Shown: positions 10,218 through 15,539 of the stretch, piece by piece
How the letters are laid out: each line of letters opens with the position of its first letter
Position numbering within the stretch: position 1 is the stretch's first letter
Virus record (IMG/VR): IMGVR_UViG_3300045918_000131
Location: 30,249-94,248 of that record
DNA length: 64,000 nt
From: a virus
Strand: one strand, 5' to 3'
The notes under the pieces: model-generated
What the model was told of the DNA's origin: nothing
Databases searched by the model: none
Seen by the model: only the letters and a program-made list of their open reading frames with translations
Translations under genes and position numbers: made by a program

Positions 10218-10412
10218 CTAATAGGCGCCTGTATTTTTAAACCACTTTCCCTTGAGCTCAAAAGAGGTATTAGAAGCATCAAAAATTCTATGTTCTATAC
10301 CAGTTAGACATTTATCGCATTTAATAGAAATATGACTCTCTTCTACTTTTCGAATATGTGTATTTTTTGAATTGCAAATATTGCATTGGTAAGTATATAG
10401 AGGAATGATCAT
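10218..10412 (-). CDS. FmdB-type zinc-ribbon protein
   Basis: 64 residues. Starts 'PLYTYQCNIC' and carries CxxC pairs at about 10-13 and 33-36 (CDKC), ending 'FELKGKWFKNTGAY' as in the FmdB/CxxC_CXXC_SSSS family of putative regulatory zinc ribbons. Overlaps the glycosyltransferase stop by 4 bases. Confidence 0.78.
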   Translation of the reverse strand: MIIPLYTYQCNICNSKNTHIRKVEESHISIKCDKCLTGIEHRIFDASNTSFELKGKWFKNTGAY

Positions 10413-11455
10413 TCTCCTTTAAATATGATAAGATTGTTTTTTAATCTATCGTTGTTTGGATTCAACTTTATTGCTTCTTTTACTAATGTAATTGCATCAT
10501 TCTTTAAACCCATATTCCATGCTGCTATAGAAGCATAATCATACGGGACTTCGTTCCAAGAGTCAACTTCTGTTATATAATGAATCTCTTTTTCTGTGAT
10601 AGCTAATGCTTGCATCATAGCATAATATGTACCTACCCAGTTTTGTAAGTTATAATATACTTTACCTAATTTAATCCAAGGTTCGCGGTCTATTTGATGT
10701 TCCGAACATGCTTTTAAAGCCCATACTAATGCAGTGTTGTTATCATTTTTCTTACAATAACATCTAGCAATAAATCTCATTGATGCACAACGCTCAGCAG
10801 TCCACTTAGCTGTTGGTAGAGACAAATGACGTTGGAGCTCTATAATTGCTTTGTCCCAATGCCCATAATACATATATTCCCTACCAAGATAATGCGAGTT
10901 ACGGTCATTATTTTGATCTTCTTGACACGATAACTCAAGCAACGGTAAATATGAACTACGCGATTTAGTATTGTCTGGATAATGGTGTACTGTAAAGTTA
11001 TTACAATAAGTTTGTACCTCTAATCCCTCATATACTAATACTTCGTGAACTGGATTAACCCATTTATACCCCTTACGTAAGTGAATCTTATCGTACCAAA
11101 ATTCTGTACCAGGACCCCATATATACTTATATCTTAACCTAGTAGTTGTATTAAGCCAACTTTTCTCTATTTCTCCCCTCCATCCAGGAGTTATAACTTC
11201 ATCTAAATCAATACATAAACAAACATCAACATCTTCAGGTACATTGTCTAATGAAATATTTCGTGCAATATCAAACCTCCATGGATTAATATTGGTTTCG
11301 TGTACTATTGCACCGTGTTCTTTAAGCAACGAAATAGTATTATCTGTAGAACCTGTATCGGTAACGACTACTACATCGGCTTCTTTTAAATTTTCCATAA
11401 ACCTAGTTACGAATTGTTCTTCATTTTTACATATTGCGTATACTGCTATTTTCAC
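10409..11455 (-). CDS. Family 2 glycosyltransferase with TPR-like C-terminus
   Basis: 348 residues. GT-A fold start 'AVYAICKNEEQFVTRFM', then 'VVVTDTGSTDNTISLLKEHG' and the metal-binding 'CLCIDLDEVITPGW' near 90. From about 190, repeated helix pairs resemble tetratricopeptide repeats. Similar phage enzymes glycosylate virion proteins, DNA or surface sugars; the acceptor is not evident. Cotranscribed with the two small Cys-rich genes. Confidence 0.85.
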   Translation of the reverse strand: MKIAVYAICKNEEQFVTRFMENLKEADVVVVTDTGSTDNTISLLKEHGAIVHETNINPWRFDIARNISLDNVPEDVDVCLCIDLDEVITPGWRGEIEKSWLNTTTRLRYKYIWGPGTEFWYDKIHLRKGYKWVNPVHEVLVYEGLEVQTYCNNFTVHHYPDNTKSRSSYLPLLELSCQEDQNNDRNSHYLGREYMYYGHWDKAIIELQRHLSLPTAKWTAERCASMRFIARCYCKKNDNNTALVWALKACSEHQIDREPWIKLGKVYYNLQNWVGTYYAMMQALAITEKEIHYITEVDSWNEVPYDYASIAAWNMGLKNDAITLVKEAIKLNPNNDRLKNNLIIFKGE

Positions 11456-11543: not shown

Positions 11544-12641
11544 TCAAAAATCAGAATCAAAATCAATATTAGTATCGTCGCGTACTATTGTTCCGACTTT
11601 ATATGCATTGTTATCTTGTTCTTGTGGTGCTGCTTGTGTATTACCGATATTAATCCAATCTTCCATATGAGGCATAGGATTATGCTTAGGGAATTTATAA
11701 TCTCCATCCAAATTTAAAAATTTATGTACTGGCGCTGCATTAAACATAACCCAAGATTTAATAATATTAGCATTAGCTCCTACTAATTCACGTCCCTCAC
11801 TGAATAAGTAATCAGCCCATGCTAATTCAGCATTTACTACTTCGTCGAACAATTTCTGTATTCTTGGTTTTAACCGGTTATATGTTGACTGACCCCTTTC
11901 AGTTTGTAGTTCTATACGTAATACTTCTTTATCAAGCTCTACGTGTATCTCTAACTCGTCTTGTGCGATTTTTTGTACTGCTTTACCCACTGGTTGGAAC
12001 CAATTAATGCTACAGATAGTAAATGTAATAGCAAAACTTGCCATAAACTGTACACGTTCGAGTAATAATAACGCAACTATACCCATAAATAATGAGTCAT
12101 ATGCTTCGTCGGATTTGATCAACCCTAATGCATACTTATGTGATGCTTGATATAAGTCGTCAAATACTTCTTTAATATTAGTTAATCGTATTAAACTTTC
12201 TTTGACTGCTAATATTTCTTTAAGTACATGCTCTGGATTATCAAAGCTCATACGCACAATTTCGGAATATGTTGATGCATGAAGTACTTCGTTATCCGAT
12301 ACACGTTGCCAAGCTGCCCACAGAGAACTATCTGTAATAAAAGGAGCTAATACAGGGGCAATACTACGAGATGCAACACTATCGGCTTCCCATTGCCATG
12401 CTAACGTTCTTATCATCATCTCGTACACCGGCTTGGGGCAATTTTTAAAATCTAGATTACATTGCGAATAATCAAACTCGTCTTCTGACCAGTCTAAAGA
12501 TTTCATCTCTTTATATAATTGCCAGATTCTAGGATAATGTTTATTTACTGTATCGAACAAGCCAGGGTCTTCTCCAAAGAATAACGGGGATTGTATACGA
12601 TACTGTTCTGGTGTTTTTTCTGTATTAAATGTTTTTGTCAT
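11544..12641 (-). CDS. nrdB: Ribonucleotide reductase class Ia small subunit (NrdB)
   Basis: 365 residues from MTKTFNTEK (RBS GAAAG). Ferritin-like di-iron protein: 'WQWEADSVASRSI' holds the first carboxylate ligand, 'NEVLHASTYSEIVR' the ExxH, and 'AQDELEIHVELDKE' the second ExxH-type site. It generates the tyrosyl radical for NrdA. Usual length (E. coli 375). Immediately follows nrdA, as in T4. The C-terminal tail, which docks into NrdA, is present (DDTNIDFDSDF). Confidence 0.93.
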   Translation of the reverse strand: MTKTFNTEKTPEQYRIQSPLFFGEDPGLFDTVNKHYPRIWQLYKEMKSLDWSEDEFDYSQCNLDFKNCPKPVYEMMIRTLAWQWEADSVASRSIAPVLAPFITDSSLWAAWQRVSDNEVLHASTYSEIVRMSFDNPEHVLKEILAVKESLIRLTNIKEVFDDLYQASHKYALGLIKSDEAYDSLFMGIVALLLLERVQFMASFAITFTICSINWFQPVGKAVQKIAQDELEIHVELDKEVLRIELQTERGQSTYNRLKPRIQKLFDEVVNAELAWADYLFSEGRELVGANANIIKSWVMFNAAPVHKFLNLDGDYKFPKHNPMPHMEDWINIGNTQAAPQEQDNNAYKVGTIVRDDTNIDFDSDF

Positions 12642-12661: not shown

Positions 12662-13789
12662 TTACAGTGAGCAAGCGCCGCTTGAACAGCCTCGGTCATC
12701 TGAGTTATTGTTCTCTATTAGTCCATTTTGACTAATAGTTGCATCTTCGTCTGCTGATAAGTCTACTCCATTACTAGTAAGACTATTTACATAATACCTC
12801 GATTTCATTCCATATTTAACCATTGTTAAATAATCTTGTATCATGTCTGTACTAGATACTTTTTGATCTCCTTGTATCTTTACAAATAAGTCAGCACTAA
12901 TTGCTTGATCGCACCATTTCTGAAAAATAGAATATACTTTAATCATATCATTAGTGCTAATATCCCATGCTAATTGATACTTATTTTTTAACTTAGTACC
13001 GTCCGGCGCGGACCAATGGTTTACTCCGGTATCATTGGTTTTCATTAAATTAAATTCTCTAATAGGATAGGACCCATTGGTAGTTCCGCTTGAAATGGTC
13101 GATGACTCCCCCGGAGCATTTGCCACTATCACTGAATTACGTATGCCGCCATTGGCAATTATCTCTTTACGTAACATATCCCAATCACGCTTACATTCGA
13201 CTGTAACTAATTCATCTACACGTTGTTCATAAGTATCCAATGGTAACCATCCTTCAGGCCATCTAGTTTTATGCATCCAGGGCGCATTGCCAAGTTCTTT
13301 ACCTAAGCGAAGACTTGCATTTAATACATGCCAGTAATGCGTTTCTGCTAATTCGTGTATAAAATTTCGTCCTTCAATAGTATTATATTTTTTATCTTTC
13401 TTTGCCATTAAATGTGCTAAACCTAATATACCAACACCAGCACTTAATCTTGACTTTGCTGTATGCTCTAAGTTAGGAAACACATAATCAGACTTATGTA
13501 TACATTTATCTATCATTTTTAATGCATAATATGCTACTTCTGCATATTGCTCATCTGACTCAATATTACCTACAACTATTCCCGCAAGACTACATAACCC
13601 GATTTCGCCGTCTCCTTCTTCATAATATTGTTTATATAATTCGGCAACGCTAGAATACCCTTTGGAAATTAGGGCTATCTCCTGACAGTTATGCACTAAT
13701 ACATCATTAGCGAAAAACGATTCTGTTTCTGGCACAGTAATATCATATACTGGCGTTGGATCTACTTTAATCTTTCTAATCTTAATCAT
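12662..13789 (-). CDS. nrdA: NrdA C-terminal part preceded by a C-terminal split-intein fragment
   Basis: 375 residues with its own RBS (CCAGGAAG before ATG 13789). Residues 1-34 are a C-intein ending 'FFANDVLVHN', with the terminal Asn needed for splicing. Residue 35, Cys, is both the +1 extein nucleophile and the catalytic thiyl Cys of class I reductase (E. coli C439, 'SNLCLEI'; here C-Q-E-I). The remaining 341 residues complete the barrel ('NAPGESSTISSGTTNGSYP') and end with redox cysteines 'CSSGACSL'. Must join with the 13894-15492 product to be active. Confidence 0.93.
   Translation of the reverse strand: MIKIRKIKVDPTPVYDITVPETESFFANDVLVHNCQEIALISKGYSSVAELYKQYYEEGDGEIGLCSLAGIVVGNIESDEQYAEVAYYALKMIDKCIHKSDYVFPNLEHTAKSRLSAGVGILGLAHLMAKKDKKYNTIEGRNFIHELAETHYWHVLNASLRLGKELGNAPWMHKTRWPEGWLPLDTYEQRVDELVTVECKRDWDMLRKEIIANGGIRNSVIVANAPGESSTISSGTTNGSYPIREFNLMKTNDTGVNHWSAPDGTKLKNKYQLAWDISTNDMIKVYSIFQKWCDQAISADLFVKIQGDQKVSSTDMIQDYLTMVKYGMKSRYYVNSLTSNGVDLSADEDATISQNGLIENNNSDDRGCSSGACSL
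13688..13789 (-). other. C-terminal split-intein segment (34 codons)
   Basis: Starts with its own ATG and ends V-H-N just before Cys. It contains the F and G splicing blocks ('VYDITVPETESFFANDVLVHN' region). No endonuclease domain. Confidence 0.9.
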
Positions 13790-13893
13790 ATGGTTCTTCC
13801 TGGGTAATACCCGTCTGGTGATTGTTGTGATGCTTTAACTTTAATATTTTTTCGTTTGTAAACCATTTATGTGAGTAGCGCAATTTCTTTACA

Positions 13894-15492
13894 TTAAGTT
13901 TCGAGTAATTCGTCACGTTCGGTTAAATCTTTTGCGGGTACAAATCCTCGATTTTTAGTATAAATCATATGGTCGGCGGTGCATCTTATTATCTTACCGT
14001 TAGGACTTTCAATCTCATATAAATCTGTCGAAACCCCTGTTTGCGCTGCGGCTGATACTTTACTCCATACTACCTCTTCGCCGTTAAATGATTTAACATA
14101 AACTTCCGTATAATATCCTAACTCATACTTGGCAATAAAGTCGTCTAATCTGACTATTTCGGCAAAATTTCCGGCGTTGTTAGACGCAATTTCAATGTTA
14201 GTATTGCCAGTCAAACAGAGATTCGACGAATAAATCTTTTCTTTAAAAGGAGTATGTTTATTCATCGTATCAAACTGATGTAAGTAATGTACTCCGGTTT
14301 CGTAACTTTGTGTTAATGCACCTAATAATAATTCACGAGCATTAACTTTAACCTTTACTTTATCTGAATTTGCGTAAAGTGTATATAATTCTTCAAATTT
14401 ATTAGGGTCTTTATTATATTGTGCTTCGTATAACTCCGGCACATCCCCGTACGAAAATAAGTAAATATCTTCATTCTTAGCTACTTTACGTGCAAAAAAT
14501 TTATTACTACCAAAACTATAATGACATCCTCCTATTTTTTTATTAAGCGGAGTCATCGGGTGTCTCAATTTTTGTATCACTTCGACTTCGGGGTCAAATG
14601 CAGTGTAATGTACTGTGCTCGCGCCCCCACGCCCATTTTGTAAATTAGCTTGTATTGCACCTACCATTGCTCTATAGTATGGCAACTTACCTTGATGTTG
14701 AATAATTCCGTTACGAATCGAGTCACCTAGAGATCTAGTCTTAATATGAGTTCCTATACCAGCACTCATACATGTCATCATATATGCAATATGATCTCCG
14801 GCCGCCAAACTGGCAGCTGAATCCTGTGTAGTATAAACACAACATGAAGCATAACCGTTTAACTGTGTACCTAAATTAACAAAATTTGGTGTTGGACAGT
14901 TAATCCTATTGAAACTAAAATGATCATACCATGCTTTTACATGTACTAAACGTTCTGCTGATGGCTCATCTTCTGCTAACGCCATAGCCATACGCATGTA
15001 TACAAATTGAGGAGATTCATACTCTTTACCTGTTACTTTGTTGCGTAATGCATACTTATAACGAATTTGATTTAATTGATAATGAGGATATTTTAAATCT
15101 CGTTTGTGGTCTATAATTTTTTCTATTGCTGTATATTCGTCAGTTGAATAATGCATGTCTACCATTAAACCAGCAGTCTGTAATTCTTCATGTAAACTTT
15201 GTACTGATGGTCTACCATATGGATAAATTACACGTTCAAGTAAGTAAGTATATAACCTACCTGCCATTCTATTATACTCCCAGGTTTTTCTACTTAAACA
15301 AGTACTAATTAAGGTCTCTTGTAATTGTTGACTAGTACAAGTTTCAGGACATTGTACTACTGCATCTATTACTATGATAGACCAATCTACCTGTGATCCT
15401 AATGTTTTTGCAGCCCATGTTCCCCAACCATTTACTTTTGATGGAGAAAAATCTTCAACTCTCCCGTCGCGTTTTACGATCTTTTTTATCAT
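13894..15492 (-). CDS. nrdA: NrdA N-terminal part followed by an N-terminal split-intein fragment
   Basis: 532 residues, RBS AGAAGG. 1-425 are the class Ia large subunit: ATP-cone at the N-terminus ('IKKIVKRDGRVEDFSPSK'), the redox Cys in 'GYASCCVYTT', and a stop of the extein at 'YSSNL'. From residue 426, 'CLTGNTNIEI' opens a Hint N-domain with the block-B motif 'CTADHMIYT' near 505, ending at RDELLET and a stop codon. With the C-part the mature protein would be 766 residues (E. coli 761), all core blocks present. Confidence 0.93.
   Translation of the reverse strand: MIKKIVKRDGRVEDFSPSKVNGWGTWAAKTLGSQVDWSIIVIDAVVQCPETCTSQQLQETLISTCLSRKTWEYNRMAGRLYTYLLERVIYPYGRPSVQSLHEELQTAGLMVDMHYSTDEYTAIEKIIDHKRDLKYPHYQLNQIRYKYALRNKVTGKEYESPQFVYMRMAMALAEDEPSAERLVHVKAWYDHFSFNRINCPTPNFVNLGTQLNGYASCCVYTTQDSAASLAAGDHIAYMMTCMSAGIGTHIKTRSLGDSIRNGIIQHQGKLPYYRAMVGAIQANLQNGRGGASTVHYTAFDPEVEVIQKLRHPMTPLNKKIGGCHYSFGSNKFFARKVAKNEDIYLFSYGDVPELYEAQYNKDPNKFEELYTLYANSDKVKVKVNARELLLGALTQSYETGVHYLHQFDTMNKHTPFKEKIYSSNLCLTGNTNIEIASNNAGNFAEIVRLDDFIAKYELGYYTEVYVKSFNGEEVVWSKVSAAAQTGVSTDLYEIESPNGKIIRCTADHMIYTKNRGFVPAKDLTERDELLET
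13897..14217 (-). other. N-terminal split-intein segment (107 codons)
   Basis: Begins at Cys (TGT, 14217-14215) right after Ser-Ser-Asn-Leu. Hint blocks A (CLTGNTNI) and B (TADH) are visible. Separated by 104 bases from the gene carrying the C-intein; that spacer has stops in the reading frame and no endonuclease gene. Confidence 0.9.
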
Positions 15493-15539
15493 TATTACCT
15501 TCTATTGTGTTGTGTGTTAATATTTACCGAGTCTAAAAA

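What the first reader, a model, noticed from the sequence alone, without database searches (positions are those of the whole stretch)
12662..15492. NrdA split by a trans-splicing intein at the catalytic cysteine
N-extein ends S-S-N-L, the C-extein begins C-Q-E-I; the joining Cys is the class I reductase thiyl radical residue, so no unspliced form can be active. The two halves are separate genes with their own RBS, 104 bases apart, and there is no endonuclease. Similar split NrdA inteins are known from metagenomes.
Basis: partly seen in the sequence, partly recalled or inferred. Interest (0 to 1): 0.78.

Follow-up and report, generated by a model that had tools for sequence, protein, structure and literature searches.

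The report
Split NrdA intein that lost endonuclease
A phage makes its DNA-building-block enzyme (ribonucleotide reductase) as two separate proteins that very probably weld themselves together exactly at the enzyme's key cysteine; many environmental phages do the same, and this copy shows the decayed remains of the selfish DNA-cutting gene that used to sit between the halves.

Summary
On the minus strand, nrdA of this IMG/VR phage contig is two genes: N-extein 425 aa + 107-aa N-intein, and 34-aa C-intein + C-extein 341 aa. Removing the intein gives a 766-aa NrdA that aligns through the junction with intein-free relatives (60-78% identical). The +1 residue is the thiyl-radical cysteine (E. coli C439); N437 lies in one half, C439, E441 and C462 in the other. 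It is not a simple frameshift. It is a new member of a known kind: dozens of environmental phages and the isolate Yersinia phage TG1 carry split inteins at exactly this site, most with a homing endonuclease (HEN) gene between the halves.

The 104-base spacer looks like the relic of a deleted HEN cassette: a copy of the C-extein start (CKEIALLT) after the N-intein stop, then a frameshifted HEN tail whose GGAAGA codons make the C-half's ribosome site. Relatives L103 and L105 show the same deletion before and after. Across 24 lineages the HEN leader often repeats the C-extein start and carries a T4-type late promoter, resembling I-TevI's autorepression operator. The intein arrived laterally. Splicing itself is untested.

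The parts
14218..15492 (-). NrdA N-extein, 425 aa, ending Y-S-S-N-L (ATP cone, alpha domain, first part of the barrel; holds the C225 and N437 equivalents)
13897..14217 (-). N-intein, 107 aa (C1; block B TADH; block N4 DLTERDELLE), stop at 13896-13894
   Evidence: TIGR01445 38.4 bits against a cut-off of 24.5; PF14890; alignment A1
13870..13893 (-). Copy of the C-extein start directly after the N-intein stop: C-K-E-I-A-L-L-T (C-extein C-Q-E-I-A-L-I-S)
   Evidence: p about 0.001 against shuffles; the same kind of copy in 12 of 24 lineages
13848..13874 (-). Relic of homing-endonuclease tail, first part, one frame: S-H-K-W-F-T-N-E-K
   Evidence: HMM of HEN tails, model positions 12-20, 8.5 bits, 6 of 3000 shuffles reach it
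13786..13851 (-). Relic of homing-endonuclease tail, second part, other frame: K-N-I-K-V-K-A-S-Q-Q-S-P-D-G-Y-Y-P-G-R-T-I-stop; its TGA overlaps the ATG of the C-half (ATGA)
   Evidence: HMM model positions 21-43, following on from the first part; both frames together reached by 1 of 3000 shuffles; same stop/start overlap in L111 and L116
13796..13801 (-). Shine-Dalgarno-like AGGAAG of the C-half gene, made by the Gly-Arg codons of the HEN tail relic
13688..13789 (-). C-intein, 34 aa (blocks F and G, VYDITVPETESFFANDVLVHN)
   Evidence: TIGR01443 33.6 bits against a cut-off of 15.6
12665..13687 (-). NrdA C-extein, 341 aa, starting with the thiyl-radical Cys (codon 13687-13685); holds the E441, C462, Y730/Y731 and C754/C759 equivalents
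15498..15503 (-). Shine-Dalgarno-like AGAAGG of the N-half gene
11544..12641 (-). nrdB, intact small subunit downstream

Best explanation
nrdA is a fractured gene. The two half-proteins are translated separately, the N- and C-intein pieces associate, and protein trans-splicing joins N-extein Leu425 to the catalytic Cys, giving a 766-aa class Ia large subunit that works with the adjacent NrdB. The intein site is the radical cysteine itself, so the enzyme cannot tolerate loss of splicing, which would protect the intein. The locus descends from the common form in which a free-standing homing endonuclease gene lies between the halves and spreads the intein. Here the endonuclease core was deleted; its 5' leader scar and its 3' tail remain, the tail probably because it carries the ribosome-binding site of the C-half. 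Shown by sequence: gene structure, exact junction, intact splicing motifs, recurrence at the same residue, HEN-deletion pair in relatives. Inferred: splicing activity, essentiality, and HEN loss in this particular copy.
For: Curated intein models above cut-off on both halves. Product aligned through the junction with four intein-free NrdAs. Key NrdA residues aligned to E. coli. C-half frame closed by three stops in the spacer. Same-site split inteins in many viral contigs: 102 junction pairs scanned (near-duplicates included), of which 74 have more than 900 bases between the junctions, 16 are split with a short spacer and 12 are continuous. Isolate TG1 has the same residue with an HNH-annotated endonuclease between the halves. 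L103 keeps the HEN while its relative L105 has the leader joined to the HEN tail. HEN-tail profile matches the window spacer in two frames at consecutive model positions, 1 of 3000 shuffles. The HEN tail supplies the Shine-Dalgarno site, and an AGGA/GGAA motif lies just before the C-half start in most HEN-less loci.
Against: No splicing assay exists for this intein. The direct searches of the spacer against phage records found nothing convincing, so the HEN relic rests on profile and shuffle statistics over about 35 codons. No relative with the same intein and nearly identical NrdA was found, so purifying selection on the intein could not be measured. Read coverage of the spacer is not available.
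Confidence: 0.88

Rival explanations
1. The split is a sequencing or assembly error; in life this is one continuous mini-intein.
For: Continuous mini-inteins at this site do exist in related phages, e.g. L107, L121, L128.
Against: Two separate frame changes would be needed. The N-half stops at the position where true split relatives stop, the C-half has its own AGGAAG and ATG, and the spacer resembles HEN-deleted relatives rather than a continuous linker.
Confidence: 0.03
2. Genes in pieces: the two halves assemble non-covalently into an active reductase without splicing, as reported for the HEN-split nrdA of Aeromonas phage Aeh1.
For: Phage Aeh1 split nrdA is fully functional without splicing (PMC2988022).
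Against: Here the break is at the radical cysteine, with intein residues on both broken ends and all splicing residues kept; N437 would be on one chain and C439/E441 on the other. Conserved splicing blocks would be unexplained.
Confidence: 0.04
3. The locus is dying: nrdA is a pseudogene of a phage that no longer needs it.
For: The HEN is probably gone; the contig is uncultured with no expression data.
Against: Both exteins are full length with all catalytic residues, and NrdB is intact.
Confidence: 0.03
4. The 104-base spacer is ordinary intergenic sequence; the HEN tail and the CKEIALLT copy are chance.
For: Nothing convincing in direct searches; the leader does not align significantly by DNA with relatives.
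Against: Separate tests give 1 of 3000 (tail) and about 0.001 (leader); their order, positions and the stop/start overlap with the C-half match intact HEN loci.
Confidence: 0.2

Closest known systems
nrdA of Yersinia phage vB_YenM_TG1 (KP202158, isolate)
   Same: Split at the same residue (QSNL|C...HN|CAEI), both halves with intein pieces, C-extein starts with the catalytic Cys.
   Different: Has an HNH-annotated endonuclease gene between the halves, with a leader hairpin and an exact TATAAATA; N-intein only about 34-37% identical.
Fractured-gene split inteins from metagenomes (Dassa et al. 2009), including NrdA-2
   Same: Split nrdA inteins from uncultured phages (cited in PMC3653736 and PMC7090010); HEN genes between split intein genes are part of that description (own knowledge; the MIJ3 paper gives another case).
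   Different: The original paper and its sequences were not readable here, so insertion point and identity to NrdA-2 were not tested.
NrdJ-1 split intein (PDB 8ubs)
   Same: Best solved-structure match of the N-intein (E 5e-11).
   Different: Host protein is a class II reductase by its name; the insertion point was not compared here.
Environmental phage contigs L108, L111, L020, L023 and others (IMG/VR)
   Same: Same site and nearest inteins in the intein tree; N-intein plus C-intein 67% identical to L108.
   Different: Most keep the HEN; their NrdA exteins lie in a distant part of the extein tree.
Aeromonas phage Aeh1 split nrdA (mobE)
   Same: nrdA broken in two around a HEN gene (PMC2988022, PMC3653736).
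   Different: Works without splicing; described as a HEN insertion without a self-splicing element.

Membership tests
Split intein (class 1, Cys type) | N-terminal splicing region with Cys1 and block B TxxH | tested here: met
   TIGR01445 over cut-off; C1 and TADH
Split intein (class 1, Cys type) | C-terminal splicing region ending His-Asn with a Cys/Ser/Thr at +1 | tested here: met
   TIGR01443 over cut-off; VHN|C
Split intein (class 1, Cys type) | Two halves encoded by separate genes, each with an extein | tested here: met
Split intein (class 1, Cys type) | Trans-splicing activity | not testable with these tools
   needs expression of both halves
NrdA catalytic-cysteine split inteins of phages | Insertion immediately before the radical Cys, which serves as +1 nucleophile | tested here: met
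   same register as TG1 and many contigs; C439 equivalent
NrdA catalytic-cysteine split inteins of phages | Homologous intein sequence | tested here: met
Fractured-gene arrangement (split intein with HEN between the halves) | Intact HEN gene between the halves | tested here: not met
   only 104 bases; probable HEN relic
NrdA-2 (metagenomic split intein) | Same insertion point and close sequence identity | not testable with these tools
   sequence held only in supplements or papers not available
Aeh1-type genes in pieces | Halves without splicing elements at the break | tested here: not met
   intein blocks on both sides

The most novel reading that the evidence does not exclude
In fractured nrdA inteins the leader of the homing-endonuclease gene carries a mimic of the endonuclease's own target (the start of the C-extein, LCxEIxL) close to a T4-type late promoter and a hairpin. 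It would act as an autorepression operator like that of I-TevI, giving split-intein HENs the same late, self-limiting expression as T4 intron HENs. The window would be a locus that lost the HEN but keeps this operator as a scar.
Probability: 0.4. Interest if true: 0.58.

Novelty: new member of a known kind. Interest (0 to 1): 0.42.

Why it matters
The site is about as protected as an intein site can be: the splice junction is the radical-bearing cysteine of an enzyme that phages use to make DNA. The collection assembled here (split with HEN, split with decaying HEN, split with only a HEN tail, continuous) lays out steps in the gain and loss of a homing endonuclease around a split intein, with a before-and-after pair (L103, L105) and a reason for what is left behind (the HEN tail carries the ribosome site of the next gene). 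The leader copy of the target site near late promoters, if it is an operator, would extend T4 HEN autorepression to intein-linked endonucleases. Fast natural split inteins are also laboratory tools, and this gives many new candidates.

Tried and rejected
Direct tblastn and blastn of the spacer against phages: no convincing hit. Single frameshift joining the halves: rejected by three stops in the C-half frame. DNA similarity of the window leader to relatives' leaders: not significant, so the late-promoter-like CATAAATG in the window is not claimed. At the second NrdA intein site in L006 no extein copy was found in the leader (p 0.48), and in S16 uvsW the HEN overlaps the N-half, so the leader mimic is not general to all fractured genes. 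Bacterial and archaeal genomes: weak C-intein matches only, not followed up. Dassa 2009 could not be read. A fold of the joined intein was not attempted because joined sequences are not accepted by the structure tool.

Full report
What was checked. The minus-strand ORFs 15492-13894 and 13789-12662 carry the two halves of a class Ia NrdA. Cutting at SSNL|CLTG and VHN|CQEI gives N-extein 425, N-intein 107, C-intein 34, C-extein 341 and a 766-aa product. That product aligns with intein-free NrdAs of three viral contigs (L001 78.3%, L002 71.4%, L003 69.7%) and of Variovorax phage V45v66 (59.8%) with no gap at the junction. Both intein ends exceed NCBIfam cut-offs. E. coli alignments place the junction between L438 and C439 and put C462, Y730/731 and C754/759 in the C-half. 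NrdB follows intact. The contig is a 94-kb virus record and the window is part of it.

Split or error. In the frame of the C-half the spacer has three stops, and joining the halves would need two frame changes. The N-half ends just after block N4, where true split relatives end, and the C-half has AGGAAG before its ATG.

How common. Profile searches of IMG/VR with the N- and C-intein, followed by a junction scan, found intein junctions at the catalytic cysteine in about 100 loci before removing near-duplicates: 74 with more than 900 bases between the junctions, 16 split with a short spacer (the window among them), 12 continuous of which four are class II NrdJ. Two registers occur: before the cysteine, as here, and just after it (SNLC|C-EI, e.g. 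L011, L116). Among isolates, Yersinia phage TG1 has the same register with an HNH-annotated endonuclease between the halves, and Klebsiella phage KP13-7 and Campylobacter phages have the after-Cys register. Literature held here already reports intein-split nrdA from metagenomes (PMC3653736; NrdA-2 in PMC7090010). So this is a new member of a known kind. Because the loci were found with patterns from three sequences, the counts are a sample, not a census.

The spacer. HEN genes in relatives end in tails such as WVTNGETNLRIFKSEEIPNGFKKGRIL (L111) and HRWYNNG...VQGKIKL (L171). A profile of 16 such tails matches the window spacer in frame 1 (SHKWFTNEK, model 12-20, 8.5 bits) and then frame 0 (KNIKVKASQQSPDGYYPGRT, model 21-43, 3.5 bits); 6 of 3000 shuffles reach the best frame and 1 of 3000 the two together. 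The relic's TGA overlaps the C-half ATG, as in L111 and L116, and its Gly-Arg codons GGAAGA make the Shine-Dalgarno site. L103 has the whole HEN; in its relative L105 the leader is joined to the same tail; L114, L124 and L137 show other stages. This explains what is left after HEN loss: the tail is needed to translate the next gene. That last step is inference.

The leader. Directly after the N-intein stop the window reads CKEIALLT, against CQEIALIS at the C-extein start (p about 0.001). In 24 lineages (N-intein under 60% identical) the leader resembles the lineage's own C-extein start at p<0.05 in 12, combined p 2e-12, while two control regions give 0 of 47. Exact TATAAATA, the T4 late promoter, occurs in 11 of 24 leaders (1.1 expected, 0 of 47 controls), and several leaders fold into hairpins with z between -4 and -6. 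In T4, I-TevI is repressed through an operator that resembles its homing site and overlaps its late promoter, and hairpins block early translation of such HENs (PMC2988022). The same reading fits here. The rival is a scar of illegitimate repair at the cut site: some copies lie inside the last N-intein codons (L098, L102, L116), which fits a scar as well. The lineages are related to some degree, so the combined p overstates independence. The copy is not seen at a second NrdA intein site (L006), and in S16 uvsW there is no leader.

Where it came from. In the extein tree the window pairs with intein-free L001 (99) inside a group with L002, L003 and V45v66. In the intein tree it falls in a supported set (98) with L108, L110, L111, L018, L020, L022, L023, L126 and L128, whose exteins lie across the root of the extein tree. 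Holding the window's intein with those of its extein neighbours (L047, L098, L100, L107) is rejected (AU p 0.0002), though the window with L098 alone is not (p 0.35). The intein was therefore probably acquired laterally, and the site has been invaded repeatedly.

Limits. No splicing data; no close relative to measure selection; the founding paper on fractured genes was not readable here; novelty of the leader pattern rests on the held literature only.

Noticed in passing
L012 3806-3860 and leaders of L143, L168, L108, L011, L025: Between the N-intein stop and the HEN start these loci have strong hairpins (z -4 to -6), often with TATAAATA in or near the loop, like T4 HEN leaders where early transcripts hide the ribosome site.
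   Followed up: partly
L006 6858-8000: A second split intein in another NrdA, at a different site (MPSES|C ... HN|SSISGATTNG), with a HEN-like ORF between the halves.
   Followed up: partly
L004 2869-9099: One phage contig with three inteins in its reductase genes: two in NrdA (one at the catalytic Cys, continuous) and one in NrdB.
   Followed up: no
L009 4903-7693: A class II NrdJ with a continuous mini-intein at its catalytic Cys, related to the window's intein, and a second, split intein further on with only a short spacer.
   Followed up: partly
L011 2029-7559: Klebsiella phage KP13-7 nrdA lies in at least four pieces: two split inteins plus inserted endonuclease-like ORFs, the first piece separated from the next by a further ORF.
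   Followed up: no
window 10409-11455: A glycosyltransferase-like ORF (CKNEEQFVTRFMENL...DTGSTD) directly downstream of nrdB; named from its sequence only.
   Followed up: no
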